Part shown: piece by piece, positions 371-49,506 of the stretch | Layout of the letters: each line of letters begins with the position of its first letter | Position numbering within the stretch: the first letter of the stretch is position 1 | Source of the DNA: Onchidella celtica | Taxonomy: Eukaryota > Mollusca > Gastropoda > Systellommatophora > Onchidiidae | Assembly (NCBI GenBank): GCA_963931925.1 | Contig: OZ007570.1 | Span: 67,795,714 to 67,859,713, forward strand | Reading direction: 5' to 3' | DNA length: 64,000 bases | The notes under the pieces: model-generated | Database searches by the model: none | What the model saw: the letters and a program-made list of their open reading frames with translations, nothing else | What the model was told of the DNA's origin: nothing | Made by a program: the position numbers and the translations under genes

Positions 371-940
371 TACGATATAGATGTACGAAAAAGAGGTCAA
401 CGTTTCCAAAATAATCAATATTTAATTAAATTATCGAAATTACTGAGTTCCTTATTATAACCGTTTGAAACAAGTTAAAGCTGACAATTTCAGCTAAACC
501 GGCCTCATCCATGTCTGATTTCTCAGCCCATACGGCAAATCTGTCATTTGGCGACAACTAACTACCTTATTTTGTGTAATGAGATTAGTTGAACTGATGG
601 TACGATTATCCATTTTCAACTTTAATAGCATATCAGACATTTTTGGTCTGTTAGATCCAGCTGTGAGAAAAATTGAAAGTCGGAAATTAATGAGAAAGAG
701 AGAACGGGTGGACTTCCGGTGAATGGCAGATCGACGTCGGTCGTGTCTAACTCTCTCTCCGCTTATCATAAGTGGCTGGGTAGCAGTTGTGTAGCGTGGT
801 GGTGAAATATTCTTGTTTGTGTGGATCACAATAGTAAGCGGTAAGATTTTGTGAGTCGTAAGGTAAGTTTTTGCTTTTCTTCCTTTCCTCTGCATTCAGT
901 AAACCCGTTCGTGTGTGAAACCCGGCTCCTAGGCTCAAAC
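371..940 (+). other. Candidate 5' UTR / leader of the LINE
   Basis: There is no supported gene here. The stretch precedes ORF1 of the LINE and may be its 5' untranslated region. I could not fix the 5' boundary: no copy of the sequence after the poly(A) tail was found upstream, so the target duplication, if any, may lie outside the window or have decayed. Confidence 0.35.
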
Positions 941-1933
941 ATGGCGTCCGCACGAGTTGTTCCGGCTTGTTTTATCCTGGACAAGGCTTTCGCCCCGGAC
1001 TCCAGTAAACCTATAGGGGGTCTAGAAATATGTAAAGCTTGCGAGGTAATCAGCGGGGAGGGTTTGATTCACCGAGCCCAGAAGATCTCTGGACTCTGGA
1101 GAATCTACCCTTTATCCTTAGACGCAAGGAGAACACTCATAATTGAAGGGATCGAATTAAGGGGGCAATCTATTACCGTCCTTGACAAGAACCCTTTTAT
1201 TGTAGCGGGTGGAGGAGAAAGGGCGACCACAAAACTGATCATTGGCAATGTGCCAATATCGGTCTCAAATAGCGAAATCGAGTGTACTCTTAAAAAGCTG
1301 GGGGTAACCGCAAGGTCGGGGATGAAAGATGAGAACTATAGAGATGAGCTAGGCGGACTGACGCGATTTAGGACTGGCAGGAGGTTTGTCTATATAGACC
1401 TGCCTGCATCTTCGCTTCCTAAGACAGCTAAAGTAGGCACTCAATTCCTGGCTTTTTTGTACTATAGGGAGCAGGAGCGAGAGGTAGTGAAGACAAAAGC
1501 AACAGGTTTGACACAAGGGGAGGGGGAGATGGAAAGAACGCAGAAAGACAACTCAGAGGACGAAAACAAAACAAAACAAAATGACACAGAGGTCGAGCCT
1601 GAGAATGAGAAGATAGGCATGTCATCTCATGACAAGGCTATTGAGCGAGCAAGAACAATGCTCACAAAAAAACAGAGTACACTCGACCTCTTTCGGGGAG
1701 GAGCGAGAAGACCGCGGTCGGCAGAAGGCCACAGTAAACGACAGCGAACCTCAAGCTTGGAGAGAGGAGGTGATAGGAGAAAAAAGGCTGAGAAAATACG
1801 CAGCGATAGAGAGAATGGTGGAGCGAGTGAGCGGGAGAGCGGGGGGAAAAATGTTAGGGCGGGGGAAGAACACACGAGTGAAAACACACTGAACAAAAAC
1901 ATTGACTGGTTTGAGCAGGCAGGCGAGACGTAG
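941..1933 (+). CDS. LINE ORF1 protein, RNA-binding (330 aa)
   Basis: I chose the ATG at 941 (context aaacATGg, good Kozak); the frame is open from 851 but no earlier ATG occurs. Residues ~100-160 (TKLIIGNVPISV... followed by RRFVYIDLP) resemble an RRM-like fold, as in L1/Tx1 ORF1 proteins that coat the LINE RNA in the ribonucleoprotein. The C-terminal third (~185-330) is very charged, rich in K/R/E, probably disordered and nucleic-acid binding. No CCHC zinc knuckle was seen. ORF1 is separated from ORF2 by 150 nt containing a TC microsatellite. The frame is intact. Identification rests on position before an L1-type ORF2 and on the RRM-like stretch. Confidence 0.7.
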   Translation: MASARVVPACFILDKAFAPDSSKPIGGLEICKACEVISGEGLIHRAQKISGLWRIYPLSLDARRTLIIEGIELRGQSITVLDKNPFIVAGGGERATTKLIIGNVPISVSNSEIECTLKKLGVTARSGMKDENYRDELGGLTRFRTGRRFVYIDLPASSLPKTAKVGTQFLAFLYYREQEREVVKTKATGLTQGEGEMERTQKDNSEDENKTKQNDTEVEPENEKIGMSSHDKAIERARTMLTKKQSTLDLFRGGARRPRSAEGHSKRQRTSSLERGGDRRKKAEKIRSDRENGGASERESGGKNVRAGEEHTSENTLNKNIDWFEQAGET

Positions 1934-2017
1934 TCTACTCGTCTTTGTGGTGTCTCTTGATTAACGGACTTGGCCTGTTCACGGACTTTGCCTCTCGGAC
2001 CTAGCGGACTTTGTCGT

Positions 2018-2018
2018 C

Positions 2019-2054
<36 letters not shown>

Positions 2055-2055
2055 C
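2018..2055 (+). repeat. (TC)n tract between LINE ORF1 and ORF2
   Basis: A pure pyrimidine microsatellite ends 29 nt before the ORF2 ATG. It sits in the inter-ORF spacer and may be a normal part of this family or expansion in this copy. Confidence 0.9.
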
Positions 2056-2083
2056 CTTTATCTGTATCTACTAGTCATTGTCT

Positions 2084-5000
2084 ATGAAGATTGTCTCCCT
2101 TAATTGTCGGGGCCTTCATAGGCAATTAAAACGCAGACTTTTATTTAAAACATTTTATCAATACGATATAATATGTCTACAAGAAACGTATGTTACTGAA
2201 GCGAAAGCTATTGAATGGATGAGAGAATGGACGGGTGAATTCTTCTTCTATCCAAGTACTAGTAGGAGTAAAGGCCAAATCATTCTAGTGAATAGAACAT
2301 TTATTATTGATAAATTAAAATTTCTGCCTTTTGATACACGATGTATCGGAATTGAATTTGAAAGGCATAATAAATTATACACGGTATTAAATTGTTACGG
2401 TCCAGCACAGCCGCAGCAGCGTGAGGGCTTTATAGAGGACCTAAGTAATATTGTCAGTGAGATAGGCCAGAGCAGTGTTATAGTATGTGGAGATTTTAAT
2501 ATGATTGTAAACAACGATTTAGATATAATTTCGGGCGCACCACACGGAAAGAAAGAAGTGGAATTATTCTCAAATTTTGTGGAAATGTGGGATTTATATG
2601 ATTGTTGGAGAGGTTTAAATAAAGAAACAAAAGAATTCACATGGTGTAGGAAAGAACCCTTTGTGGCTAGAAGACTAGATTACATTTTTTGCGATAAAGA
2701 ATTAGTATCATGTATAACAAATGTGGAAATTAAACATTTTCCGTCCACAGACCATCGTGCCGTTATCGTAGAAATTTTAGAACATAACTTCCCGAGAGGC
2801 CCCTCCAGGTGGCAATTCAACGCGTCATACATTAATAATGTCGATTTTATAAACCATATGAATGCATTTATATCCAGTTTCATAGCAGATGAGGAAAAGA
2901 ACGATCTGGATCACAGAACAATATGGGAACTGCTGAAAGCAGCAATTCAGACAGAATGTATGCAATACAGTAAGAGCAATCCTATAAAAAATCACAGAAG
3001 AGATAAACTGGAAGCAGAGGTAAATGCCATCTCCAAGCTTATTGCTCAGTTCCCGGGTGAAAGAAAACTGCAGGAGAAATACGAAAATATGAAAAAACAA
3101 TTAGAAATTGAACTATTAGCAAAAACGAAAGGAGCAATAATAAGATCCAGAGTGAAATGGACCGAAGAGGGAGAAAAAAACACCAAATTCTTTTTAAATC
3201 TGGAAAAGGCCAGGGGAATATGTAATACAATAAAACAAGTTAAAAATGGGGATGGTGAAATAACAAGGGAACCGTTAAATATTCTTCGGGAAGCACAAAA
3301 ATATTATGAAAATCTCTACACTAAAGAAGCATCGGTGACGACGGTGGGCGATAAATTAGACACCTTCCTAGATGGTTTAGTGTATGACAGATTAGCTGAG
3401 GAAGACAAGGAAATGTGTGATCAGAACATTAGCGTGGAGGAAATGGGAAAAGCATTGAAAGGACTTAATAATGACTCAGCTCCCGGATCCGATGGGCTTA
3501 CGGCTTGCTTTTATAAGGTGTTTTGGCGGCTCTTAAAAAAACCGTTATATGATAGTTATATAGAATCGATAAAGCAGGGAGAATTGTCAGTTAGTCAGAG
3601 ACGCGGTATAATCACTATGATACACAAAGGCAACAACAGCAATAGGGAAGATCTAAACAATTGGCGACCAATAACACTAACAAATGTTGACTATAAAATC
3701 TTTACAAAGGTTTTGGCTTTGAGGTTGCAAAAAGTTATAAAAAGTATCGTACATGAAAATCAAAGTGGATTTGTTAAAGAGAGAACAATTACGTCACATA
3801 TTAGAATAATAGATGACGTCATAGATTACGTAAATAAAGAGGACATGGCAGGTTTGATTGTATCATTGGACTACCAAAAAGCCTTCGATACGGTGGATAA
3901 GGAAACAATATTGGTAGCCCTTGAAAGATTTAATTTTGGTCCAAAATTCATTCATAACATACAAACGATTTTAACAAACACGCAGAGCTCAGTAAAGAAT
4001 GGTGGGTGGCTATCTAAATGGTTTAAGGTAGAGCGAGGTGTTCGGCAGGGATGTTGTGTTAGTCCTCTACTTTTTATCTTAGTGGTAGAAATACTAGCGA
4101 TAAAACTTAGGTATAATGAAGAGATAAAGGGAATTATGAGTGAAGGAGTGGTAACAGATACGCTTAAACTTTTGCAGTACGCAGATTTACATGACGCTAC
4201 TGATAAAAGATAAAACAGATCTATCCAACGCATTGAAAATTATTGAGCAGTTTTCAGACATCTCGGGGCTAAAGCTTAATAGAAATAAATCAGTGGGAAT
4301 GTGGGTGGGAAGTAATAAACAAAGGGAGGAAAGAGGGGAAGGAATAACGTGGGTAGAAAAGGGAGGTAACATAAAAATACTTGGGATATACTTCAATGCT
4401 ACGGTCGAGGCATCTAATATTTCACAAAATTGGATGGAAAAAATAAACAGCATTAAAAATCTGATTCCTAGATGGTCCAAAAGAAATCTGTCGATATATG
4501 GAAAGAGTATAATAGCAAAAACTTTTTTACTATCAAAACTAAACTATGTTATTCAGGCCCTATCCCTACCCCAGGAAACTCTGGCTGAAATAGATCGAAT
4601 CATATTCAAGTTTTTGTGGCAAAAAAAGTATTCAAATAAAAGAGCTTTTGAAAAAATCAAACGGAACACTTTATGCAGAGAACCAAACGAGGGAGGTTTA
4701 GGAGTAATCAGTATAAAGGATCAGCAAAATGTCTTTCTCATAAAATGGTTTAAAGAGATATGCTTACAAAAGCCACATCTAAAAACAGGAGTAAAATTAG
4801 CCAGTCATTTTTGCAAAAAGCTGGTAAGCTTGCCTTACTTAACCACGTCAGATATTAAAGCGAGAGAAGTAAAACAAGTTGGTACAATAAACTCGATTTT
4901 TTGGCAGAATGTAATTAAAACATGGCTAGATTTAGAAAAAAGGGATAAGGAAAATGAAAACGATACTGCTCCAAATAGGCTAGGCCGGCAACCGCTATTC

Positions 5001-5849
5001 AACAACAATAATATTAGATATAGAAATAAGCCACTGTGGATAGAAAAATGGGTCAGAGGGGGAATTAAATATCTGTATCAAATGTTTAGTGTAAATAAAT
5101 GGAAAACCCTGCAAGACATTGCTGGGATAATCGGACATTACCCTGGTATCCATTTTGATTATTGGGCAGTTACAAATGCTGTTAAAAAAGAATGGAAGGA
5201 AATTTTTGTACAAACCAGAACGGAGGACAGACCTCCTCTGCATAATATAGAAGATGAGACAGATGAAAATGTAAAAGATATCTTTAAACTAACGAATAAA
5301 GAAATTAGAGAGAAACTAATAAATAACAAAAACGCCACGATCTGTAGCTTGGGTTTCTGGAAACGAAAATACAATGTCGATATATATCCTTATTTTGAAA
5401 GCGGGTTTAGAGCCTGCAAAGAAACAAGATTGAGGCTCTTACATTTTAAAATCCTACACAATATTTACCCAACCAATATTCTCTTACATAAAATGAAAAT
5501 AAAGGAAAGTAATAAATGCGAGCACTGTAAGACGCCTGATTTTATAGAACATTTCTTTTTCTATTGCAGTAAATTGAAAGACTATTGGCCTTATGTGGCC
5601 CAGTATATTTTGAATAAAACCGGTAAAAGAATTGAAATAAATGAGAAAATTGCACTTTTTGGAATAATACGTGGGGACTTGGACTATACTGTAAATCAAA
5701 ATATTATTGATGATATTAACTTTGTACTATTAGTTGCTAAAATGTGTATCGGTAAAATAAAATATGGCAAATCAATAAATCTTAAATTTGCATTTGAGAC
5801 AGAAATGCAGGTAAGGGAAAAATATCTGAAGGTATGTCCGAATAAATAA
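2084..5849 (+). pseudogene. LINE ORF2: endonuclease-reverse transcriptase, frameshifted
   Basis: ORF2 starts at ATG 2084 (MKIVSLNCRGL). Residues 1-235 form an APE-type endonuclease: LNCRG, QET, CGDFNM (~135), RLDYIF, and TDHRAV near 220. RT follows at ~440-760: PGSDGL (~466), NWRPITL, LDYQKAFD motif A (~595), GVRQGCCVSPLL (~652), then LLQYAD (~698). At 4187-4190 four bases (ttac) stand where three are expected for the second Asp of YADD, so the first frame stops at 4211-4213 while the protein continues in the +1-shifted frame from ATG 4191 to 5849. The remaining part holds the thumb region and a CEHC...H...C motif (5518-5570) typical of L1 ORF2 ends. The shift may be a mutation or assembly error. 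Function: nicks target DNA and primes reverse transcription of the element RNA. Confidence 0.85.
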
Positions 5850-5951: not shown

Positions 5952-7801
5952 GGGCAATGACGAAAAGATGAAAATGCAAAAACTAGAACATTCCAAAGTG
6001 CATGAAGTAAAGTATAATTGGTATACGGCCGTATATTGCTATTATTATTATTCTGTTATTGGCAATATATTATTACCATCTAGTACAATAATTGATTGTC
6101 GTGTCGCATCTGGCTGATAATAACCTATTTATTTATTTATTTATCCTTATTTTTATCTCGTTTTCTTTCTTCTTTGTTTTTATCTTACTTGCCTTTGTAT
6201 TTGTTGAGATGTTTATACATTATATCGTTATTATTTAATTATAGCTGCTTTTCATGTACTCGTAATAATTTGTAAATGAAGGATCCACTCAGTTTTTTTT
6301 TTTGTTTTTTGCTGTTGAAAATGAATTGTAAAAACTGTCAGCTGATAATGAAAAGACCAAAATGGTTCGAGAACAGCCGACAACACAGAATTCAGCAACT
6401 GACAATTCTGGGAGATAAAAGACTGCAATTGGGTCCGATCCTCAGAATAGTCCTTATAGACAGCCATGTATTTATTTGCTGGACTATTATCAGGTCATAC
6501 GTACTTCATACTTATCTATTTATTCATTTAACCAGCCACTTTGAACTAGACTTCTCTACATGTTTATTTGCTTTATATGGATACCTTCTTAAAGTAGGTT
6601 TTTTTGTTGCTGTTTTTTTTTGGTTTTTTTTTCAAATTTCCGTAAATTTTAAAAAATATACCAGACCTATTAAGTGATCTCCAATCACTGAGTCATGCAC
6701 GAAATGAATGCATTGCATTTGAATCTGAGCCCAAAAAAAAAACAAAAAAGAGGAGAAAGAGAGAACGAAGGAAAGAGTAAAAGAGAGAGAGGGAAAGAGA
6801 AAACATATAGACTGTGAATAATCGACCTTAGTTCCAGGCAATCTTCCCACCCCCACCCCCCCCACCCCCCTATTTTTGTTCTCCACTTCCTTGTTTCTCT
6901 GTTCAGAGCGTGCATCTTGCCTTTTACGTCAGCCTTTTCCCATTACCTTTCTTTACCCTCTGAACAACCCAACCTTCTGTCCTCTTGTACCCTTACTAAT
7001 GATGACCATAATGAACCTTATGCTATGAGTATTGCGTGTGGTAGCGACCATTAGTTTTACCCAGAGGTTGGCAATACTGGCATGCCATAGAGCCAGAATG
7101 TACCCTAGTTTTATCCTGAGACTTGCACGTCCTTACTGTTTACGAGGAACTGGCATGGGAGAAAAGTGTCATTATACTTGGCAATCATCTGATGTTTACA
7201 GTATAGACTAGGCTATGGTATTTACTGGTACGAGTAACTGGTGACAGAAGAGACAATTATGTCTATCATTGTTGTATCTTATGTGGGTGATAACGACCCT
7301 GTTTATCAGTGCAAGAAAAAGACACGGTGTGCGGAACCGAATATCTCTAGAACCGAAATTGTCCATCGGAAATCACTCTGAAAAAATAAAAAGAAGCAGT
7401 ATCTAGGTCAGGTTACAAATTACACATATGTTGTTGCAAATTCTTGCCAACGTACTTTAGAGTAAATTGCTGTCTCAGTTTGTCTAGTGTAATATGTAAC
7501 CTTTTTTTAATTTGTTGTTTTTCACGATCACTTCAGGTCGTGTTCAGATATTGTTAGTGGACGGCGCTTACGTATCACTTTGACTTTGAACAAAATATTG
7601 TTCTGTTAAGTTTATCGTTCGACATGTCACTGGACATTTTGTACCATTTATTATCATTCTTATTTGCAAAATCAACAACATGTTTTTATTTTGTGTATGT
7701 GAGGGGGTGGGGTGGATGTGGGAAAGATAGAGAATAATCTTGGAGTAAATCTAGACCTAACTTGAAAATCGCCAAAATATGACAATTGTCTGTGTTTTCA
7801 G
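5952..7801. other. Non-coding, AT-rich; no gene recognised
   Basis: This stretch lies between the LINE tail and the first visible GTPase exon. It contains poly(T) runs (6290, 6615), a purine-rich patch (6728-6800) and a C-rich patch (6845-6875). I looked for a P-loop GxxxxGKS exon of the downstream GTPase and did not find one. Confidence 0.5.
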
Positions 7802-17898: not shown

Positions 17899-18292
17899 AC
17901 TTGACTCAGGGGGACACGGTGGTCTAGAGGTAAGCGCTCGCCTCTCATGCCGAAGGTACCGGGTTCGAATCCCGGTCCGTGCAAGCATGTTGGAATCTTG
18001 GGATTTTTCTCATTATTTTCCTGTCCCTGATCCTATGATAGGTAGGATGGAGCGTCTAGTCTTCTCTGATAAGGACGAAAAATTGGGAGGGCCCGTGTGT
18101 AGCCTACGTTGCGCACTTTAAATATACCTTGGCAGTTGGAAATCGAAAAGAGCACGCCGAACAGGCCGCTGCCTGGGAAAAATTCTTAAAAAACGAATCC
18201 CTACCACAACAAGGAAATAAAAACAAGAAAAGTAAGTGTAAATGCCAAGGGCAGAGAACCTCCTTAAATAAAGACCCAAACACTTGACTCAG
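17899..18292 (+). mobile_element. tRNA-derived SINE (17910-18281) with 11-bp target duplication
   Basis: The head is tRNA-like: A-box region 'tggtctagaggtaagcgct' and B-box 'ggttcgaatcc'. The body (gataaggacgaaaaatt, ttggcagttggaaatcg, gccgaacaggccgctgcc) recurs at 57991 (+), 24214 (-) and the split copy 45992/50228 (-). The direct repeat acttgactcag flanks it at 17899-17909 and 18282-18292, defining the insertion exactly. Pol III-transcribed and mobilised by a LINE in trans, by family knowledge. Confidence 0.85.
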
Positions 18293-20072
18293 TGATGCCA
18301 AATTGGGCAAAGTAACACGCAGCTCATTACCAAAAGTTTTAGAAAACGAGGCAAACAATATTATTGAACAGTTAGGATATTTGGGATTAAAAGCAAACGC
18401 CTCGAAAACACAATTAGTCTTTTATAACTCAAAAAAGAATGGAAAAGTCCAAATTCAAGGCACCCCTGTACATTCCACGTCATCGGCAAAATTTTTGGGG
18501 GTCATTTTGGATCGAAATTTAACATATAGGGAGCAGATCGGTGACAGAGCCAGAAAGAGTTTGGGGGCCTTAAATGTAATGAGAAGGATTTCCGGCTGGA
18601 GATACGCCGCCCCCTTCAAAACTAGGCTTCTCCTCTATAACAACTATATTAGGGCTAGATTTTCATACGGGGAGGAGCTCTATCACACAGGAAACAAAAC
18701 TAGCTTAGACAGCCTGGATTCTATACAGTACTCAGCCCTTAAAAATCTTTCACAAATACACAGTGGACCCAGTCAATTAAAATTAAATGCGGCTCTTAAA
18801 ATACCCCCTTTACATCTGGAAAGAACTAAAAGCATCCTTAAATACTGGGCCAGAACAAAATTAAATCCAGGCAACCCTATAAACACCATCATTGAAAACT
18901 ATGAAACTGAAATCCAACTTAAACGAAAGCCGCGACTAGACACATTAAGAAATAAAAGTTTAATCCATAACATGATTGATCTATCCCACAAACTCGGGGG
19001 CGGTAATCTCCAGCTGGACTGCCACCTCCCACTTCCACCAACCTGGGGGCTCGCGGGACTCACCTTAGACACCGCCCTGGCAGATGAAATCAGTAAAAAA
19101 CTAGATACACCTACCATTATGAAAGCCAGGGTGTACGAACACATAGAAAGATACTACAAACACACAGAGAAAATTTACACGGATGGGTCGAAGACAGAGG
19201 ACGGGCGTGTGGGATTGGGCATCTACAGCACAGACACAGACTTAGATAGGTCAATCAGAATCACAGACAACACGAGTATACTCACCGCAGAGCTACACGC
19301 AATACAACAAACACTTATAGAATTGGACGCCCGCCGGATCAGGGACCGACGGGTGACCATTCTTACAGACTCATTATCAGCCATAAAGACAATACAGACA
19401 GAAAGCCAGTCTAACAGCAAACACAACATGATACACAGCATTATCACACTTGTAGATAGGATTTTCAGATGCGGTACAGACGTGGTCCTGCTATGGATAC
19501 CGGGCCACGTGGGGGTCACCGGGAATGAACGGGCCGACCTCCTGGCTAAGAGTGCCACAACAAAAACAGAAATTCTAAACATTAAACTAGATAAAAGTGA
19601 CATCTATAGTCTAATTAAAAAACATATAAATGAAATTTGGAAAACTGAATTTGAAGGATACCTAAATCAAAAAGTAAACATTATAAAGCAGATATATCAG
19701 AACTGGGAAACATTTGTCATGGATTTTAGCACTCCCAGCGAGCTAGGCCTAAATACCCTAAGAATAGAAACTTACAGACTTAGGGGCAACTTTAATTGTA
19801 ATCTCTGCGACGTGCCCATGACGACAGAGCACATTCTTTTTAACTGTAAGAAAAATGTAATAGAAAGGAATAAACTTAAAAGGTTATTTAATGAAACGAA
19901 AAAACCATTTACATTGGCCGGTGTCCTGTCTCTTGTAGACAATAGTTTTAAAAAAGAAAAAAGGGCCCTTGTCAACAAAATAAATCTATATGTTGACTGT
20001 AACAAAGCTGGCACCCCTGACCTGGCAGATCATGGTAGCAATGGCACCACTCAAAATCCCATCGCGGAATAG
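18293..20072 (+). pseudogene. 5'-truncated LINE ORF2, RT C-terminus + RNase H (I-like group)
   Basis: The open frame begins after the RT catalytic boxes (GLKANASKTQLVFY... AKFLGVILDRNLTY) and has no true start ATG. An RNase H domain follows at ~285-415: YTDGSKTEDG, TAELHAIQ, LTDSLSAI and GHVGVTGNERADLLAK carry the expected D-E-D-(H)-D residues. A C-terminal zinc motif CNLCDVPMTTEHILFNC is near residue 500-515. An RNase H domain is found in I/Nimb, R1, Loa and related LINEs but not in the L1-like element at 941, so this is a different clade. It is open for 589 codons despite truncation, so the loss is probably recent. The upstream border coincides with a SINE and its duplication. Confidence 0.8.
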
Positions 20073-33904: not shown

Positions 33905-34520
33905 GACAACAATCATGTAGAAATCCCAATGTGTGGGACTGGCATCAAATTTGCACATGGGAATTATAAGGTTCCTATGAAGATCCGCTGGTTACGGCGT
34001 CAGTTTGATGTAGGGAACTTTGTCTGACATTAATCCTACCAATCTTACGGAAATCCTATACAAATTTTGGTCGGATTGGCGTAGGGATGCTGGCTGGGAT
34101 GCTACAATCTTAGTTGTTGTATGTGTTTGAAGGTGTTATGAAATGACGATAGTATGGATGACTTACCTCCCCCCCTTCCCTCCCTTCCCCCCCCCCATCC
34201 CACCCCCCCCCCCCCCATCCCACCGATCAAAGTTTGCGCTAAACACAGTGGTCTATGCTTGTTCATTCCAGATTGGGAATTAATCAGCAATTTTTTTGAT
34301 TTCCTTAAACATCAAAATGAGAATGTCTTTCTGTATGTTTATCCACAGTACAACAATAATTTGTGAAAGCTGAACAGCCGGCATACTCACGTCAATCCGA
34401 CGTAGATTTGCATAGGATTTCTGTAAGGTTGGTAGGATTACCCTGGCGACGAGTTCCCTGCATCTACCCAACGACAGCGTAGAGATCTGCGTATGAAAGA
34501 CGTCATTCCTATGTGCAGGC
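33905..34520. repeat. Foldback element with inverted arms, split by the LTR retrotransposon
   Basis: Left arm 33905-34105 and right arm 34375-34520 are inverted copies (gatgtagggaact / cctaccaatcttacgg / atcctatacaaat against their reverse complements), around a C-rich loop (34165-34220). The right arm resumes at 42424-42480 beyond the LTR retrotransposon, so the element pre-dates that insertion. Confidence 0.65.
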
Positions 34521-35739
34521 TGTCACAAATCCCAGACTGGGAGATGTAATAGTTTATGACAGGACGACAATCACGAACAACAAGTTTAACACTTAACAAA
34601 ACAGCCCATCAGACTCACACATTTATTAAACATAATTGTACATATACTAGCGCAATTACATATATTATATTATTGAAATGACTGCCGTACAACGGCCTTA
34701 TTCTCACACACACGCTCCCTCGGATCCACAATCCGGTAGTTACTCCTAAAGGCACTTCGGCCTCAGCCTCTCCCCTCAGGGTCTTAATAGTACATTAATG
34801 ATTCACTGGCACCGCAGTCTCTCAATACCACCTTCCTATTGTCATACACCGTAGCACTCCCCTAGCACCTCCGCAGGGCAATAACACATTATTATTTCCA
34901 TAGCCATCAACATGGCAACAACATAGTATCAGTTCACTAGCCTATCAACATGGCAACAACATAGTATCAGTTCACTAGCCTATCAACATGGCAACAATAT
35001 AGTATCTCATTCACTCTCATATCTACGTCCCTGTCCGTGGCCTGACTGCCACGACTTTATGTGCCTCTACTGTCCTGCACTGACAGCCTCACTTCTGGCC
35101 TATGTGTGGCCTCCGGCCCTATGCTGGCCTATCCCCTGTGCTCATCGAGGTGGCTCTGCGGCCCGTCCCCGACACCTACAAGAATAACATTACATTGGTA
35201 TAATACCCTACCGTTTCTATTCACTCCACCTCTCCTCACAATCCATGAAGCGTACACACACTAGTTCACCTTTCACTCACCACACATCTTACGGTAACAC
35301 ACTTCCATCGGGGTACACACTACTCACTCGCGCTACAAATCCATGAACTCACTTTCATCTATCGCTCATGGCGCACATTGCTATATTCAATATCAAGGAC
35401 TTCCACATTCCTCACATATACTTATTCACATCATAGTAATAGACGAATATAATATAATACATCAATCATAATAATCAATCAACATTCTACATACCAGTCA
35501 TAACTGGAAAGACTCTCACTAGTCTTCTCGACTGCTTCCTTTTATCTCTGCCCGATGGGCTATTATTCACAGATCCGCTCCCTAGGACCTTCTAACTTGC
35601 AGTGATAGTTATACAGCGCTTTCGCCTCCTTCAGACCCCCCACTCATGACATGCACGACTTTCTCACTTGTCTCCGTGCGTTAATTTTACTCTCCTCTCC
35701 CCCCGTAATTATTAACTATCGCTCACTCCACTCGTGACA
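34521..35739 (-). repeat. LTR (3' LTR of the minus-strand element)
   Basis: 1219 bp, begins tgtcacaaat and ends ctcgtgaca. Contains a 38-bp unit (tatcaacatggcaacaacat...) repeated three times at 34905-35005. No difference to the other LTR was seen where compared. Confidence 0.95.
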
Positions 35740-35753
35740 TCATCCCCCACCCC
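35740..35753 (-). promoter_or_regulatory. Polypurine tract next to the 3' LTR
   Basis: Minus strand reads ggggtgggggatga directly before the LTR TG, the expected position for plus-strand priming. Confidence 0.6.
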
Positions 35754-36095
35754 AAAAAAATTAATGCAATTAATTTCAAATCGCATCAAGATGACTGTCA
35801 ACGAGTGAGCCTGAGCAATACCTACATTAAAAATGACCTACCAATGCCCCCAGCACATAAAATACTGGGATCAGGGGAAAATATGGGGATCAATATGCCA
35901 TGCATTATGCATATATGTATCACATCATCAATAGCTAACTAAACACAATATCTAATACAGAATCAAAAACCATTCAACCTATCAACCATTCTTCATATCA
36001 TATATTTTATAATGTCAATATTTTAAAGTCGACTTATTCACACAGATCCTGTCAATGTTCCTGTCCTCCGATGTATAAGCTCCTGAAATCTTCCC
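35754..36095 (-). other. Non-coding spacer between RNase H stop and purine tract
   Basis: AT-rich element sequence with no open frame. Confidence 0.6.
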
Positions 36096-37960
36096 CTAGG
36101 CTCGACTAAGGTAGTCGGCGATATGATTGCTGGTTCCTGGAATTGGTTGAATAACGAAGGTATACGGCTGCAAAGCCAATGCCCATCTAGACAAGCGTGG
36201 GCTGGACGAACGATTCTTCGACAAAAATGTCAGTGGCTTGTGGTCTGTCTGGATACAAAATTCTCGTCCCATGAGATAACGTCCTAGTTTCTGGACGGAC
36301 CAGACAATGGCAAGACACTCACGCTCTATCACAGAATACTTTCTTTCTCTCTGCAATAACTTCCTACTGACATAACATACAGGATGGAGACATTCGTTCT
36401 TCTCCTGTAGAAGACAAGCGCCGACACCAGAGTCCGACGCATCCGTTCTGAGGATAAAATTAGATCGAAAATCGGGTAATATCAGAATGGGTGACGATGA
36501 TAATGCTGTCACCAAATTATCAAATGCTGTCTGACATTCAGACGTCCACTGGACCTTATCGGGTTGTCCCTTCTTAGTAAGGTCAGTAAGAGAAGATGAC
36601 AAGGAGGAAAAATTTGGAATGAACTTTCTGTAATAATTTAAAATTCCCACTAAGCTTCTGACTTGTTTCTTTGTTTTTGGGATTTGCAACCCTACTAACT
36701 TGTCAATTTTTGTTTCTTCAGGTCTCTGAACACCTCTACCCACAATATGTCCTAAGAATATTATCTCTGGACATGCCAAATCCATCTTTGCGGGTTTAGC
36801 AGTTAACCCAAAATGACGTAATCGTTGAAAAATTACTGTTAGTGTCTGAATATGATCAGACCATGTCGACGTATGGCATGCTATATCGTCAAAGAATGAA
36901 ACGACATTAGGTATGTCCCTCAACACTAATCTCATTAATCGTGCAAACGTCGCTGGCGCGTTTACCAACCCAAATGGCATGACCTTAAATTGGAATAATC
37001 CAATGGGCGTTTGGAACGCCGTGTATTGTTTAGACTCCTCAGTAAGCGGGATTTCCCAATAACCTTTCGTTAAATCTATCTTGGAAAACCACGTGGACCC
37101 GGCCAATGAAGCTATTAATTCCTCCTGAAACGGGATAGGCTCCCTATCGCCTACCGTAATAGTGTTCAATCTTCGAAAATCAATACAGAACCGCACCGAT
37201 CCATCAAGTTTTTTCACGAGGACGATGGGTGATGAATACGGCGATGTTGATGGTTCTATCACATCTAACTTCAACATTGACTCAACTTCCTTTATGACCC
37301 TATCCCTCGAAGAAAAAGGCAACGGATACGGTCTAAGAAATACTGGCTTATCGGAAGTCAACTTTATTTGGTGCTGGATCACCGTAGTGCGACCCGGCAA
37401 ATCCGTAACAACATCCGGAAATGACGCTAACAGGGTCTCAAGTTCCCTACTCCTTGAACTCGTAAGGTCAGGGTTAATTTTTACGTCCCTGTAACCTTGT
37501 GTCGGAGTTAACTCCGGCAATTGAATTTGTAACTCCTCCTGCGCCTCGGTGTCGCTTACGTCACAGTCCAACTGGTCTACGACCCCCGTACAAGCAGTAG
37601 AGAAGACAGTCTCCTCCGGTCTTGCCTGTGCACACAGATACTGTGGTCTCTCATAAAATCTCTGTAGCATATTAACATGGAAAACCTTACTCGTTCCATC
37701 AATGTGGATAGCGTAATCTACCTTTGAAACAACTCGCTCAATAACATAAGGACCTTTCCATGTCATCAATAACTTATTATGGTCCGTAGGTAACAACAAC
37801 AGAACCTTGTCTCCTGGCTTAAAAATTCTCAGTTTGGAACCTCTATCTTTATAGTCTTTTGCTCTTTTCGAAGCGATACCCGAAGCTTCTTCTGCTATAG
37901 TGCGCGCTGAAGATAGTCTTTCTCTTAAATCAACAAGGTACTGAAACCTTTTTAAACGGT
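36096..37960 (-). pseudogene. Pol C-terminal part: integrase C-domain, reverse transcriptase, RNase H
   Basis: The frame ends at TAG (36098-36096). It is open upstream to 38060, but meaningful homology starts near 37950 with YLVDLRERLSS and runs into an integrase C-terminal domain (FKPGDKVLLLLP, MTWKGPYVIERV, FHVNMLQRFYERP). RT follows: VIEPSTSPYSSPIVLVKK, VRFCIDFRRLN, FSKIDLTKGYW, FGLVNAPATF, and the catalytic SFFDDIA (FFDD rather than the usual YxDD, ~36885-36900). RNase H follows: LRTDASDSGVGACLLQ, ERECLAIVWSV, QTDHKPL, ending HIADYLSRA. Gypsy-type chemistry: copies element RNA and removes the RNA strand. The integrase core expected upstream is missing and the frame differs from the Gag frame, so it is annotated as broken. 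Confidence 0.85.
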
Positions 37961-40245
37961 TCCGAAACCGTGGGGATCTTTTGAAGAGGGGCCTGGGGTG
38001 TACGACCCCTATGCGTCGTCTTTTGGCACGCACTGCACGTCTTACAATATAAACGTACATCTCTGTATACTGACGGCCAATAAAAATCTTTCAGAACTCT
38101 TTGCTTGGTTCCCGCACTTCCCACATGATCCGCTAATGGAACATCATGGGCCAGACGCAATACTGTAGCAATTAACGACCGTGGCACGACGACCTGCTTT
38201 TGAACGGAAGCCACTGTGACGTACATACGGAACAGAATGCCCCCCTGGACAAAAAAAGAAGATAACCCGTTCTTATATCTCCTCGTTTTCTCGGTTCGCG
38301 CTTCCCCAAAACATGGGTTTAATGATGGGTCCTCCCTTTGTAATCTCGCCAAGCGCTCTGGCGTGATGTCTAGGTTGACCGCTGGCGTAGCCAAAGGTCT
38401 AATCTTGTCTTTATCGGCTACCCGTCGGCGTGTTTCGACCGCGGCGCAAAAGTCAATACCTTTTGATTGCGACCATGCTTGCACGTTCTCATCGGAAGGG
38501 GAAACTACCCGTGATACATTCCCAATGATGAGCTGGGCGCCTGGAAAACAACCAACGACTGCTTCGACTTCCCCGCTAAGGAAAGGTGTATCTATCATTA
38601 TTTTTGCCATGGGTAATTTCTCAATGGCCCCCGAAAATTGGATGCACGGGACAGTCTCACCTGTAAGCTGTGAATCCCGAATGCAGTCTCTATGCACTCC
38701 CACAACGGTAGATCCCGTATCTCGTAAAACCGAGACCGGTTCGTCCCCAACAAACCCCGGATAAACCCTAAGACCACCTCCTGTATGACATGAATTTATA
38801 ACGGGGATCTTTCTCCCACAAGGTAAAACACCGGAAGATAATAACTTCTCACAACTGGGACACTTAGAATACTGTCCGCCTCCGTTGTCCGATGTAACAC
38901 ACGCAGCCGCATGGTGAAATTTATTTGGGGAACATGGACTGGAGCTACTGTCCACGTTCGCGGCTATCCTACCTGCAGGGCAGTTCACGCTGATGTGATC
39001 TGCTCTTCCGCAGTTCCAACACTTCGCGGCCCTACACTCGCGCGAAAAGTGACCCACGCGTCCGCAAGTCCAACACTCCGCTCCCTGTGCTGTACTAGGC
39101 CTGGGTCCCCGTGACCCCTCGCGACCGGAACTAGAGTCCCCATGCCGTCGGTCATCGGCAAAGGTCACAATTCGCCCCCGGCCATTACCGCGACCTAGCC
39201 CTCCTGCTCGGTCAAACTTACCGGATCCATATGCCGGTGATTGGTGATATCCCCTACGATGCCCCTGGGCTTGCCCGCTATAGGCACCACGCTGACGCGA
39301 CCTGTCCCTAAGTCCTGCCGGCGACCCCTCGACAACGGCGACGTATCCAGCATCTTGGACGTACGCCCTGGCGACTGGTTTGGACGGATGCGCCGTACGG
39401 TATGCCTCCGCCAACTTAGACGCCTCCTGCACCGTCGCGGGTTCGTTCTCTTTCAGGAAAGCCACCAGATCTTTGTGGCACGACGCGTACAGCTGGTCAC
39501 GGATCATTAAGTCTTTCAGTTTGGCAAAATCCGTGCCCACATGCGCCAAGTCTACCCAGTTCGCGAAATACTCCGTTAGTCTCGCGACGAAGGCAGCAAA
39601 GTCCTCCCTGGTATCTGCACGTGCTCGCCTAAACTGCTCCCGGAAATATTCCTCGGTACGCGCAAATCGGCGAAGCAGCAAAGCCTTCAGCTTATCGTAA
39701 TCTTGCACGTCTTCGCGCTGTAGCTCTTTAAAGTAGGTTAACGCTCGCCCCTGCAATAGCGATGCCAGGTACGTGGCCCATAATTCCTTATTTTCCCCCC
39801 ATTGCAATTGTGCGTTCAATTCGAACCTGTAAAGGAAGGCGTCTATGTCGTCCTTCCGGTCGTCGAACGTAGGGAGCTTAATCCTGACACCACCTTTATT
39901 GGGTACCTGCCGCTCAACTGTTTCTGTTGGCGCACTCTTTTTGATTTCCAACTCCGCTATTCTTACTCGCGCGTCTGTCTCCCGCTCTTGAGCTTCTATC
40001 TCCTTTAACCTTATCTCCTGCTCCCGTTCTTGAGCTTCTATCTCCTTTAACTTAAGCTCCCTCTCCTGTTGCTTATCCTTAGCCTCTCTCTCCTGCTCCT
40101 GAGCCTTAGCCTCTTTTTCTCGCTCTCTATCCTTAGCACGCTCATCGCGCAAATCCGCCTGCTGTTCTTTGATCCAGCCGCGTAGCTCCTCTCCCTCAAG
40201 GCCAAGTTCCTTACCCAACTTCATTAATTGTTGGAGTTCCGCCAT
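37930..40245 (-). pseudogene. Gag-protease-integrase N-domain polyprotein (771 aa), truncated
   Basis: ATG at 40245. Residues ~20-115 are an E/K/R/Q-rich coiled coil; ~120-280 a retrotransposon Gag capsid region (LPTFDDRKDDIDAFLYRFE, YLASLLQGRALTYF). Two CCHC knuckles follow near 386-426 (CWTCGRVGHFSREC, CWNCGRADHISVNC). An aspartic protease has VLRDTGSTVVGV near 500-512. Residues ~690-745 carry an integrase H2C2 zinc domain (H...DH...YCKTCSACQK). The frame then reaches EPFKKVS, where the catalytic core normally begins, and stops four residues later at 37932-37930. The DDE core is absent and the next recognisable integrase sequence is in a different frame. Confidence 0.88.
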
Positions 40246-41190
40246 TTCACAGATTTATGGTTATGGTATGTATTACAAAAACGGCTAACCTGTCGGTATG
40301 ATCACTAACAACACGACCAGAGACCTGAGATCACACCAGATATAACCACACCTACTTGTATCCAATACAATTCAGAAATTTACCTTTACAGCACAACTAA
40401 TTCTATATTCATAAAATGTACTGCACTATTAATAATAAAAAAGAGTAGAAAAGACAAGAATAAGGAAATTCAATAGAAGGACCACAAGTACGTCAAGGAC
40501 AACGAACCAGACTAGGACAAAGACCTAAAAAAGAGAATATAATGGAAAAAACTGCAACCTAACTACGCCGATTACACTACACGGTACGAACAAGAACAGA
40601 GTCTGAAAAAAAAGAACGTATCTATAGATAGGGAAGAGAGGGACAAGAGAAACGTCTTCCTAAAACAACGAGGAAGATAGAACGCTACAACTAAACAAAA
40701 ATACAGGTCCCTACAGAACTGTTCACTGTGATGAACGAAGTTCCAAATTTAGCCCACCTCCCGAAGAGGACAAACTACGCTCACCACAGCAAACCCGCGC
40801 CACCGCCCGTATAACCTATAACGACAACAAAAACAGCAAAAACAGGGAAACAGACAGATGAAAAGACAGCCCTCAATCCAGGGTACAAAATTTCAGAATT
40901 TCACTTAACTTTCACCCTTGATCTAAATTTCTCCCGTTTTCTCGGAGCTCTGGCTGCTTGACCTCTACAGGCTGGCACGCACACACTCTGGAAAGTTTAA
41001 ATACACATTAATACCTATTCATAGCAATACATGCATCAATACATATTATTATTCATAAACATACATAAATCATATCATCATGAAATTTCCATTCATCCCA
41101 CGAACAAAGACAACAGCACGAATTCCTAGCACAACAGAAAAACAACTAGATATAACGAATACACACTGTCAAAATGACCACAGGTAAACA
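40246..41190 (-). other. Leader of the LTR retrotransposon
   Basis: About 950 bp between primer site and Gag ATG, A-rich in the + orientation, with no long ORF. Expected to contain the packaging region and possibly a splice or IRES function, which I cannot see. Confidence 0.55.
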
Positions 41191-41203
41191 GGACGAGCCC
41201 CCA
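41191..41203 (-). promoter_or_regulatory. Primer binding site, tRNA-Pro type
   Basis: Minus strand reads tggggGCTCGTCC one base after the 5' LTR. These 13 bases equal the start of the classic tRNA-Pro primer site used by several retroviruses. Confidence 0.75.
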
Positions 41204-41204
41204 G

Positions 41205-42423
41205 TGTCACAAATCCCAGACTGGGAGATGTAATAGTTTATGACAGGACGACAATCACGAACAACAAGTTTAACACTTAACAAAACAGCCCATCAGACTC
41301 ACACATTTATTAAACATAATTGTACATATACTAGCGCAATTACATATATTATATTATTGAAATGACTGCCGTACAACGGCCTTATTCTCACACACACGCT
41401 CCCTCGGATCCACAATCCGGTAGTTACTCCTAAAGGCACTTCGGCCTCAGCCTCTCCCCTCAGGGTCTTAATAGTACATTAATGATTCACTGGCACCGCA
41501 GTCTCTCAATACCACCTTCCTATTGTCATACACCGTAGCACTCCCCTAGCACCTCCGCAGGGCAATAACACATTATTATTTCCATAGCCATCAACATGGC
41601 AACAACATAGTATCAGTTCACTAGCCTATCAACATGGCAACAACATAGTATCAGTTCACTAGCCTATCAACATGGCAACAATATAGTATCTCATTCACTC
41701 TCATATCTACGTCCCTGTCCGTGGCCTGACTGCCACGACTTTATGTGCCTCTACTGTCCTGCACTGACAGCCTCACTTCTGGCCTATGTGTGGCCTCCGG
41801 CCCTATGCTGGCCTATCCCCTGTGCTCATCGAGGTGGCTCTGCGGCCCGTCCCCGACACCTACAAGAATAACATTACATTGGTATAATACCCTACCGTTT
41901 CTATTCACTCCACCTCTCCTCACAATCCATGAAGCGTACACACACTAGTTCACCTTTCACTCACCACACATCTTACGGTAACACACTTCCATCGGGGTAC
42001 ACACTACTCACTCGCGCTACAAATCCATGAACTCACTTTCATCTATCGCTCATGGCGCACATTGCTATATTCAATATCAAGGACTTCCACATTCCTCACA
42101 TATACTTATTCACATCATAGTAATAGACGAATATAATATAATACATCAATCATAATAATCAATCAACATTCTACATACCAGTCATAACTGGAAAGACTCT
42201 CACTAGTCTTCTCGACTGCTTCCTTTTATCTCTGCCCGATGGGCTATTATTCACAGATCCGCTCCCTAGGACCTTCTAACTTGCAGTGATAGTTATACAG
42301 CGCTTTCGCCTCCTTCAGACCCCCCACTCATGACATGCACGACTTTCTCACTTGTCTCCGTGCGTTAATTTTACTCTCCTCTCCCCCCGTAATTATTAAC
42401 TATCGCTCACTCCACTCGTGACA
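41205..42423 (-). repeat. LTR (5' LTR of the minus-strand element)
   Basis: Partner of 34521-35739 at a constant offset of 6684 bp with equal length, including the three 38-bp internal units. Holds the promoter in the minus direction, by family knowledge. Confidence 0.95.
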
Positions 42424-42480
42424 CAGGCTTGATCTCAATCCTACATGTCTACTTCCTACTGGGTATAGCTGGTTGGGTAG
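42424..42480. repeat. Continuation of the interrupted foldback right arm
   Basis: After the caggc duplication the arm sequence continues (ttgatctcaatcctacatgt). Confidence 0.5.
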
Positions 42481-46860: not shown

Positions 46861-47296
46861 GCCAAGATCTCGATCTAGATCAAGATTAGATCTAGATATA
46901 TCTAGACGTCTAGATCTAAATCTATACATGTATCTAGCTTTCTCTTGACTTAAATTCTAGTGCATGTAATTATTGAGTTGCCAGCAAAGAGACGGCAAAA
47001 ATTTTGGTATAGATCTAGATCTATATTTAGAATTCTCTGAAAACACTGTGATCTTCCAGCCCAGCAAATTACGAGCACGAGATCTAGTAGTGCCGGTGTT
47101 GTTGCTATTGCTGCTGTTGTTGTTATTGTTGTTGTTGTTTTGTTGTGTTTTCATTTTTTTAAGTTATTGTCTTTCCAATCGTAACGTAAATGTAACGTAT
47201 ATCACAACAAAGTATGAATTAGAAAACTAGATCTATCTATATCTATATCTAGTGATATAAGTCACTATTTCTTTCTTTATCTCACATTTTTTTCAG
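46861..47296 (+). other. Intron of the hAT transposase
   Basis: 436-nt region between donor at 46854 and acceptor 'tttcag' at 47296, rich in agatct/gatcta repeats and a (TTG)n run near 47100-47145. Confidence 0.65.
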
Positions 47297-49506
47297 GTCA
47301 CACGAAAGAAGGTAGTATAGAACTACATGTACCAGAAATAGATCTATTAACATTGGACTACCAAACTGACAAGGGTCATTTTGCCGATGATCTAACCGAT
47401 GATATGAAACATTTCATCGTTCAACATGGACTTTGTCGCCCGAAAGGGCCATTTCCAAGGAATACACAAAATAGAAGCTTTTCTTCTTATTTCTATGGGG
47501 AAGATTCTACACAGTTCTCACATTCTTCTAATACATGGCTTTGCTATTCACAAATACAAGATGTAGCTTATTGCCATTTCTGTTGGCTTTTTTCCCCCGA
47601 CCACCGAAAGTTCGACACTCGGGATTGGCAAGGTTTGTCTAAAAAAGTCAAAGAGCATGCACTATCAGGAGCCCACATTCAAGCCTGCATAGTTGGAAAC
47701 CATTGGAAACAACACAAAACAGTCGATCACAAGATCGATGCAAGTTTATCTGATGTGACTAGATTCTGGAGAGAGATTTTGAGAAGACTTGTTGAAATTA
47801 TTTTGACAAGAGCTAGAAATAACATCGCCCTGAGAGGAACGACTGATCAACTTGGTGCTATTTCAAATGGGAACTTTCTTTCACAGGTGGAACTGTTGGC
47901 CAAGTTTGATGTTTCTGTGAATACCCTAGTGAGCAAAAAGAAAGGGTCTACTAACTATTTAAGTCCACTTATTCAGAATGAACTTATTGGTATTTTAGCA
48001 TCAAGAGTGAGATTAGACATTTTAAATGAATTGAAAAGTGCCAGATTTTATTCCATCATCATGGACACCACCCAGGACAGTTCGAAAAAAGACCAAATGA
48101 GCTTAATTTTTCGATATGTATTAGTGGAGGACAGTGTCAAAGTTCATGAAGCTTTTATCAATTTCTATCATATCCACGACCAGACATCGGAGGGCCTACA
48201 AACAGCACTACTGTCGTTCCTAAAGGAGCATTCAATTGATTTAAAACACCGCAGAGGACAGGGCTATGACGGTGCTGCGAACATGTCCGGGTCATGCCAA
48301 AGTCTTCAAAAGAGGATTATTGACTCTCAAGCAAACGCATTTTACGTGCATTGTGCAGCGCATAACCTGAATTTAGTTGTCAACGACGCAGTGAAAGGAA
48401 TTGTAGAAGTCAGGATTTTTTTCGATATCATTCAGCAGCTGTACGTATTCTTCGGCCACAGCATCAACAGGTGGGACATTCTCGCTGAAATCACTTCTGA
48501 GTCGGAAAGTACACTGAAAACGTTAAACCCTACACGCTGGTCTGGAAGAGTCACCTCTTTAACTGCTCTGAGACTAAGATTTCCAGATGTTTTAAAAGCT
48601 CTCAGCAAGATTGCTCTCCAGAATACAAACAAGGACACGATTCATGAAGCTATATCACTGAGGAACAAGATGGAAAATTTTGACTTCATTGTGATTCTCA
48701 CAGTGCTCAGTGACGTTTTGTCCGACATCAATGTAGCATCAAAGCTGCTTCAAGCCAAAGATCTTGACTTATCAAAAGCTGTGTGTGAGCTGGATGCTGT
48801 GTTGTCCAAACTGAAGCAACATCGACAGGATTTCAGTTCATTTCTGGCGAGGAGTGAAGACACTGCTCGACGATGGTCCATACCCACAACATTCAAACAG
48901 AAGAGAAAGGCAGCAGTAAAGTTTGATGATGATATCGACCCGGAGAGAATCTTCAAAGTAAAAGTGTTCTATGGCATTTTGGATACTATGATCCTGCAGT
49001 TGGAGTCTCGCTTCACAGGAACAAAGAAAATCACCTTGCTATTCAAAGTCGTGAACCCACCATCGCTTCTCACTTTACAAGAAGTTGATATCAATACTGA
49101 AGTTGACAGGCTTGTTGAAGCGTACCCTGAAGACCTGTCTAAGGCACTAGCTACAGAGCTGGTTATGATGAAGACCTCTATGGGTGATAAACTAACAGGA
49201 TTGTCTTCTGTGCGACAGCTCGCAACCTGCCTGCTAGTAGATTATAAAGAGGTTGCTCCTAGCTTTCCCAACATCTGCGTTCTCCTGCGCATCTTCATGA
49301 CAATCCCTGTGACTGTTGCATCCGCGGAGAGGTCATTCAGTAAGCTGAAGATTATAAAAAACTATATGAGAACATCCATGAGCCAGGAACGCTTGCAAGG
49401 TTTGGCACTGCTCAGCATTGAAGCAGAGAGAGCAAGAAAACTAGACTACGAGCAAGTAATCAACGATTTCGCGGCCATGAAAGCAAGGAAAGCACCGATG
49501 GTTTAA
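47297..49506 (+). CDS. hAT transposase, exon 2 (DUF4371 / hAT C-terminal)
   Basis: Starts after the acceptor (47296); the first two bases complete a glycine codon, then HTKEGSIEL. Counting from the Leu codon at 47353, residues ~60-80 are a TTF-type zinc-finger remnant (WLCYSQIQDVAYCHFCWLF), then the DUF4371 region with the first catalytic-type aspartate in IMDTTQDSSKKDQ (~235), GYDGAANMSG (~302), HCAAHNLNL (~333), a conserved TRWSGR, and the C-terminal hAT dimerisation domain with TVASAERSFSKLKIIK (~652-667). Stop TAA 49504-49506. The full length of about 735 residues fits the family. It cuts and pastes the element ends in the nucleus. The exon is uninterrupted, so this copy looks young. Confidence 0.92.

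What the first reader, a model, noticed from the sequence alone, without database searches (positions are those of the whole stretch)
34521..42423. Young LTR retrotransposon with Ty1/copia-like domain order but gypsy-type RT, lacking the integrase catalytic core
Seen: on the minus strand the order is Gag, protease, integrase H2C2 zinc domain, integrase GPY-like C-domain, RT, RNase H. Gypsy RT normally precedes integrase; the reversed order is known for Gmr1-type elements. At ~37930-37960 sequence jumps from EPFKKVS (start of the rve core) to YLVDLRERL (after the core) in another frame, so about 200 residues including all DDE residues are gone. LTRs match and the 5-bp duplication is perfect, so the deleted form itself probably transposed using integrase from a relative.
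Basis: partly seen in the sequence, partly recalled or inferred. Interest (0 to 1): 0.8.

Follow-up and report, generated by a model that had tools for sequence, protein, structure and literature searches.

The report
Retrotransposon copies spreading without own integrase
A very young mobile element in an animal genome has lost the cutting-and-joining core of its integrase, yet hundreds of copies carry the same loss and swap sequence with core-bearing relatives, so the damaged form most likely spreads by borrowing enzymes from them.

Summary
Window 34521-42423 (minus strand) is a Ty3/gypsy element with Gmr1-type order. Its 1219-bp LTRs are identical, its 5-bp duplication (CAGGC) is perfect, and 530 bp of integrase core are gone. 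The deletion is not private: the junction occurs at 748 places in the host assembly. Six of six such copies whose two LTRs I read (of nine known pairs) have perfect 5-bp duplications and 0-1 LTR differences, so the deleted form itself transposed repeatedly. Core-bearing relatives (2242 places) share the genome. A second, in-frame 528-bp core deletion occurs at 1184 places and an RT deletion at 775. Within the 3.7 kb compared, deleted and full copies are separable only in about 310 bp upstream of the junction; elsewhere they share polymorphisms and their trees intermix, so the forms recombine. The loss also shifts RT-RNase H out of frame, so this form probably encodes only Gag-protease and takes RT and integrase in trans. 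Oyster database proteins show an analogous in-frame core loss. New variant of a known kind: trans-mobilised deletion derivatives such as mouse IAP I-Delta-1.

The parts
34516..34520 (.). target-site duplication CAGGC, left
34521..35739 (-). 3' LTR (1219 bp)
   Evidence: 0 mismatches to the other LTR
35740..35753 (-). polypurine tract GGGGTGGGGGATGA
   Evidence: sequence directly before the 3' LTR
36096..38090 (-). ORF with integrase C-terminal remnant, RT (about 36741-37217) and RNase H (about 36162-36548); in the +1 frame relative to the Gag-protease ORF
   Evidence: Ty3 RT best PDB match
37633..37945 (-). integrase C-terminal remnant (LRERL... WKGPYVIE...) downstream of the deletion
   Evidence: aligned with full-length copies; no Pfam match
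37943..37948 (-). deletion junction AAAAAGG/TTTCAG; 530 bp of integrase core missing here
   Evidence: 748 places genome-wide
37948..38263 (-). patch (integrase H2C2 region): 17-26% different from 12 full-length copies over its first about 210 bp and 4-12% nearest the junction, while the rest of the scanned interior is at background
37930..40245 (-). Gag-protease-integrase zinc-domain ORF (from ATG), ends at UGA just past the junction; SCAN-like capsid about 39388-39651, CCHC about 39031-39075, protease DTGS 38710-38721 (read by eye), H2C2 about 38011-38187
41191..41203 (-). primer-binding site TGGGGGCTCGTCC (tRNA-Pro type; the name is recalled)
41205..42423 (-). 5' LTR (1219 bp)
42424..42428 (.). 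target-site duplication CAGGC, right

Best explanation
The window holds a recent insertion of a non-autonomous, integrase-core-less form (D1) of a Gmr1-like Ty3/gypsy family. SHOWN: D1 is one of several structural forms of the family in this genome: F with the core (one open frame from inside Gag to RNase H in 7 of 12 copies read); D1; D2 with an in-frame core loss; and an RT deletion found beside D2, F and D1 junctions. The 8 LTR pairs read make perfect 5-bp duplications. SHOWN by alignment: the core losses lie between imperfect direct repeats. The D2 junction is an exact 9-bp repeat (ACCTTGTTG). The D1 junction has 2-5 bp of identity, depending on the upstream allele. INFERRED: the losses arose by template jumps during reverse transcription. 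D1 RNA makes Gag-protease, is packaged in particles that also hold F products, and is copied and integrated by F's RT and integrase. Template switching between co-packaged RNAs keeps exchanging everything except a stretch tied to the deletion. D1 may be a D2 x F recombinant, because it carries the D2-like patch upstream of the junction and F-like sequence downstream.
For: Junction at 748 places (up to 2 mismatches), reversed-pattern control 0; 40 of 40 scored hits of an 801-bp junction query, out of 2151 first-look candidates and including the window, align end to end at 98-100%. Six of 6 D1 LTR pairs read (of 9 D1 pairs found) have 0,0,0,0,1,1 LTR differences and perfect, distinct 5-bp duplications. 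F: 3' junction 2242 places; 40 of 40 scored core hits, out of 1047 candidates, full length at 100% as rounded; 7 of 10 F interiors fetched are one open frame over the stretch. D2: 1184. RT deletion: 775. Recombination: 32 D1 versus 12 F rows show 17 fixed differences, all within 280 bp upstream of the junction, 0 in the RT half, and 40+31 shared polymorphisms. Elsewhere divergence equals within-form diversity; dS is 0.56 in the patch versus 0.06 upstream and 0.043 downstream. Trees give 1 D/F change in the patch but 8 in Gag-PR and 10 in RT-RH. RT-deletion junctions lie beside D2, F and D1 junctions (coordinates). The integrase remnant looks relaxed in D1: 20 synonymous/30 replacement variants versus 109/64 upstream, p=0.005.
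Against: No RNA, protein or mobility data were available. The copies read are biased to those most like the window or L026 (top-scoring hits). The relaxed-constraint contrast with F's own patch is only p=0.06. Divergence is lower right beside the junction (4-12%) than further up the patch (17-26%), which simple linkage to the deletion does not predict. RT-RNase H in D1 is as conserved as in F (singletons 36 synonymous/26 replacement, ratio 0.21, against 12/11, 0.27, in F). Recombination explains that, but cis use of RT would too. LTRs of only one F pair (C9, 3 differences) were read, so relative ages of F and D1 are not established. One of the six D1 pairs (C24) lacks the primer site beside its 5' LTR, so that copy has lost more than the core.
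Confidence: 0.82

Rival explanations
1. D1 is semi-autonomous: RT-RNase H is still made from D1 RNA by +1 frameshifting in the 161-base overlap (for example at the terminal UGU-UGA-U) or by internal initiation, and only integrase is borrowed.
For: The RT-RNase H frame is free of stops and frame-breaking gaps in 31 of 32 D1 rows (2 of these cover less than 80%), and its variants are strongly constrained.
Against: The RT halves of D1 and F behave as one recombining pool (0 fixed differences, 31 shared polymorphisms), so the constraint can come from F. No known strong shift site was recognised by eye, and the likeness to an antizyme site is recalled, not tested.
Confidence: 0.2
2. The core was removed as an intron and the spliced RNA was reverse transcribed.
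For: The core is cleanly missing in many copies.
Against: None of the possible breakpoint placements (6 for D1 from a T-allele parent, 3 from a C-allele parent, 10 for D2) gives GT...AG. Two different junctions exist, each at a short repeat.
Confidence: 0.03
3. Private deletion, dead copy or assembly artefact.
For: Only one copy in the window.
Against: 748 junctions with reversed-pattern control 0; six separate insertions with clean duplications.
Confidence: 0.02
4. D1 arose directly from a full-length element by one jump, not from D2 x F recombination.
For: A full-length copy with the T allele has a 5-bp match (GTTTC) at both breakpoints. Only 14 F copies were read in the patch, so a full-length parent with the D1 patch may exist unseen.
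Against: The D1 patch groups with D2 (34 D tips in one clade, support only 0.44) and not with the 14 F tips. The window's patch is 93% like D2 copy L075 and 83-84% like F, and divergence stops at the junction.
Confidence: 0.35

Closest known systems
Mouse IAP I-Delta-1 proviruses (PMC6466679, passages read)
   Different: That deletion is 1.9 kb and leaves a gag-pol fusion frame. D1 here loses the integrase core and shifts RT out of frame. The host and element class differ.
RLG_Cereba / RLG_Quinta of einkorn wheat (PMC11302176, abstract and section 5)
   Same: An autonomous plus Gag-donating non-autonomous pair sharing LTR ends and primer-binding site.
   Different: Quinta lacks RT and integrase coding and its gag has barely any DNA homology to Cereba's. 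Here the forms differ by about 1-3% outside the patch and recombine.
Gmr1-type Ty3/gypsy elements (PMC8220671 and PMC6238403, passages)
   Same: Integrase upstream of a gypsy-type RT.
   Different: The passages read do not describe core-less, amplified forms.
Core-less Gmr1-like proteins, mostly named as Pacific or Portuguese oyster (P0127-P0165), beside full-length P0166
   Same: H2C2, RT and RNase H kept and the core lost, with a near-identical full-length relative.
   Different: The loss is in frame, about 260 residues including most of the C-domain, at another junction. Known here only as proteins, so DNA contiguity is unchecked.
ONSEN intra-family recombination in Arabidopsis (PMC5668417, abstract)
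   Same: Pairwise recombination among co-mobilised copies.
   Different: No fixed deletion allele is described in the abstract.

Membership tests
Ty3/gypsy (Metaviridae) | RT-RNase H most like Ty3 type | tested here: met
   Best PDB match Ty3 RT 4ol8, E 4.9e-79
Gmr1 clade | integrase upstream of RT | tested here: met
   H2C2-rve piece lies upstream of RT in one open frame in L026; H2C2 upstream of RT in the window
Gmr1 clade | RT groups with named Gmr1 references in a tree | not tested
   No named Gmr1 reference sequence was fetched
Ty1/copia | copia-type RT | tested here: not met
   Ty3-type RT
Autonomous LTR retrotransposon | integrase with DDE core and RT in an expressible frame | tested here: not met
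   No rve in either ORF; core missing and RT +1 out of frame
Non-autonomous partner of an autonomous family (criteria in PMC11302176 section 5) | same LTR ends, primer-binding site and LTR as the partner | tested here: met
   One F pair (C9) against the window: same 8 bases at both LTR ends, same 12 bases beside the 3' LTR, primer site 11 of 12 bases the same, LTR 97% identical. Only one F pair was read
Trans-mobilised deletion derivative (IAP I-Delta-1 kind) | many independent insertions of the deleted form itself | tested here: met
   748 junctions; 6 of 6 pairs read with clean duplications
Trans-mobilised deletion derivative (IAP I-Delta-1 kind) | mobility shown to depend on proteins from relatives | not testable with these tools
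   needs experiment
Retrocopy of a spliced transcript | GT...AG boundaries | tested here: not met

The most novel reading that the evidence does not exclude
Gmr1-like elements repeatedly evolve a multipartite way of life. Within one recombining family, deletion alleles of the integrase core and of RT circulate as interchangeable modules, and core-less junctions make up nearly half (1932 of 4174) of the core-site junctions counted. Core-less forms are favoured (shorter, Gag-rich, or relieved of a costly core) rather than merely tolerated, and the same solution arose independently in oysters. Such a family would behave like a segmented or defective-interfering virus population that lives in a genome.
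Probability: 0.3. Interest if true: 0.78.

Novelty: new variant of a known kind. Interest (0 to 1): 0.6.

Why it matters
It is a clean natural case of an LTR element without a catalytic integrase core that has gone on inserting. Core-bearing and core-less copies are nearly alike, so the deletion can be traced as an allele against a recombining background. That makes it possible to test how often packaged RNAs recombine, whether integrase acts in trans, and whether Gag-protease-only forms help or parasitise their full-length kin. The oyster proteins suggest this may be a repeated outcome in Gmr1-type elements, in which integrase sits between protease and RT in one polyprotein.

Tried and rejected
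Rejected: private deletion or collapse (748 junctions); intron; copia RT. An early reading, that the patch comes from a separate full-length lineage still present in this genome, was not supported. Copies sharing one patch allele (L073, L074) turned out F-like in the patch, and no full-length copy with the D1 patch was found among the 14 read; I did not search exhaustively. My first full-length count (3357) also matches D2 with one mismatch, so I replaced it by the 3' junction count (2242; 3357-1184=2173 agrees). My first size for the deletion (512 bp) left out part of the repeat; one search gives 530 bp for D1 and 528 bp for D2. The place lists show exact matches only (mismatch column 0 throughout) and stop at 100, so pairings made from them are positive finds, not full counts; a notebook entry that treats the C1 lists as complete is wrong in that. 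The anchor for L031 failed in the patch alignment; that table is not used. Argopecten P0178 also lacks a core but is a low-quality gene model in which an intron could mimic the loss; I do not count it. Literature: and 121 of the held library listed no paper whose title or abstract opening describes core-less Gmr1 forms; for most listed papers nothing more was seen. PMC3701649 was looked at in passages and not used.

Rows dropped before counts: the tandem neighbours L041, L043, L044, L045, L051 and the duplicate L048 were left out, L033 is the window copy itself, and L031 and L032 were set aside (L031 is D2; L032 is not resolved at the junction). In the RT half, L035 and L038 are cut short. In one search the D1-D1 dS of the RT half came out undefined; (9 D1 rows) gives 0.044. 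In one search insertions were not counted, so the F tally of the RT half there misses L064 (1 inserted base). The identity of the host was not established: the assembly carries no name.
Full report
Anatomy. On the minus strand the element runs from 42423 to 34521, 7903 bp. It has identical 1219-bp LTRs (95% upper bound on divergence 0.25%), TGTCAC...GTGACA ends, CAGGC duplications, a primer site TGGGGGCTCGTCC and a polypurine tract GGGGTGGGGGATGA. One ORF carries SCAN-like Gag, CCHC, protease (DTGS read by eye) and the integrase zinc domain, and ends at a UGA. A second ORF, overlapping by 161 bases in the +1 frame, carries the integrase C-terminal remnant, RT and RNase H. The RT is Ty3-like.

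The deletion. The host assembly (1.14 Gb in 43 contigs, unnamed) was searched. I fetched interiors of 12 LTR-paired copies chosen by LTR likeness to the window. Eight of 12 run across the junction without the core. Two (L026, L029) carry the core, which in L026 matches Pfam rve and shows the D, D and E motifs by eye. One (L031) is the other core-less form D2, and one (L032) is not resolved there. In 14 of 14 core-bearing copies read, the core site is 530 bp longer than in the window; in D2 copies L031, L075 and L076 it is 2 bp longer, so D1 lost 530 bp and D2 528 bp. The frame runs from inside Gag through RT in L026 (1327 aa, ending early after a 4-base gap in RNase H) and to RNase H in 7 of 10 further F interiors, so a single polyprotein is the full-length state and the frame break belongs to D1. 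The D1 junction joins AAAAAGG to TTTCAG within an imperfect direct repeat. The D2 junction uses an exact 9-bp repeat ACCTTGTTG and keeps the frame into the C-domain.

Copy numbers. Patterns of 26-31 bases with up to 2 mismatches, reversed control 0 in each case: D1 748, D2 1184, F 3' junction 2242, RT deletion 775. D1 plus D2 is thus 1932 places against 2242 with a core (46%). These are junction counts, not counts of intact elements. D1 insertions are young and genuine: of 8 LTR pairs read, 8 have perfect 5-bp duplications, and the 6 D1 pairs have 0-1 LTR differences over 1219-1223 bp. The two others, an F copy (C9) and a rearranged one (C3), have 3 each.

Recombination. I compared 32 D1 and 12 F copies over 3.7 kb. 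Divergence between forms equals diversity within forms except in about 310 bp upstream of the junction, where it is 17-26% over the first 210 bp and 4-12% nearest the junction. There are 17 fixed differences, all there, and 40 and 31 shared polymorphisms in the Gag-PR and RT halves. In the patch tree all 34 core-less tips (32 D1, 2 D2) form one clade with a single change, although with weak support (0.44); in the other two trees the forms are intermixed with 8 and 10 changes. RT-deletion junctions lie beside D2, F and D1 junctions. Among the exact matches listed for contig C1, 17 of 24 sit 313-314 bp from a D2 junction, 3 of 24 sit 326 bp from an F junction and 4 are unassigned; on C2 one sits 326 bp from a D1 junction (19280693 beside 19281019). 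These lists hold exact matches only, up to 100 places a call. With the window copy (no core, RT present) and F, all four combinations of core and RT presence exist, which requires recombination or repeated deletion. The D2 copies read (L031, L075, L076) have the RT deletion and a stop soon after it. By totals at least 409 D2 junctions have no RT-deletion junction within 2 mismatches, but none of these was read.

Selection. In D1 the zinc-domain patch shows 20 synonymous and 30 replacement variants, against 109 and 64 upstream (p=0.005) and 17 and 10 in F's patch (p=0.06). D2 agrees (ratio 0.53 in the patch, 0.23 in Gag-PR, three copies). The integrase remnant thus looks less constrained, while Gag-PR and RT look constrained. 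Because those parts recombine with F, this does not show that D1's own RT is used.

Mechanism. Shown: repeated insertion of D1, presence of F, shared ends (one F pair), recombination. Inferred: D1 makes Gag-protease only, and RT and integrase come from F in shared particles. The arrangement works like IAP I-Delta-1 (PMC6466679, passages) and like the Gag-donating Quinta (PMC11302176, section 5). Whether D1 helps or parasitises F is open.

Elsewhere. A protein search (120 of 2901 listed) gave one protein with H2C2 and RT but no rve among its precomputed domains (P0120). A search with its middle part (120 of 324 listed) gave 39 near-identical proteins (P0127-P0165), 31 of them named as Crassostrea or Magallana gigas or C. 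angulata, none with rve and 38 with RT, beside a full-length one (P0166). The junction PLGQ/MDYK, read in P0120, P0131 and P0137, differs from the window's. By codon reasoning (inference, no DNA seen) no GT...AG intron fits it. These are protein records, so the number of loci and DNA contiguity are unverified.

Novelty. Trans-mobilised deletion derivatives are known. A core-less integrase allele at hundreds of copies in a recombining Gmr1-like family, with a second in-frame allele beside it and a likely parallel in oyster, is a new variant as far as the searches named in Tried and rejected reach.

Noticed in passing
G000 C11:39683002-39703802, also C13:437875, C14:32096846, C5:29120660, C2:45562385: D1 copies in tandem, four in a row at 6666-6668 bp spacing on C11 and pairs elsewhere; F copies too, three in a row at 7063 and at 7123 bp spacing on C1. 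They probably share LTRs; origin by unequal exchange or during reverse transcription was not examined.
   Followed up: partly
window 845-5849 (+): LINE-like non-LTR element: Exo_endo_phos plus RVT_1 on ORF 2075-4213 and a weak zf-RVT match, below Pfam's cut-off, on ORF 4155-5849; ORF 845-1933 had no match.
   Followed up: no
window 18288-20072 (+): 594-aa ORF with an RNase H domain, possibly the end of another non-LTR element.
   Followed up: no
window 47218-49506 (+): 762-aa open frame with DUF4371 and hAT dimerisation domain, a hAT-type transposase.
   Followed up: no
window 34906-35006 and 41590-41690: 38-bp tandem repeat (ATCAACATGGCAACAACATAGTATCAGTTCACTAGCCT) inside each LTR.
   Followed up: no
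P0178 (Argopecten irradians): Scallop Gmr1-like gene model also without integrase core; low-quality model, may be a prediction artefact.
   Followed up: partly
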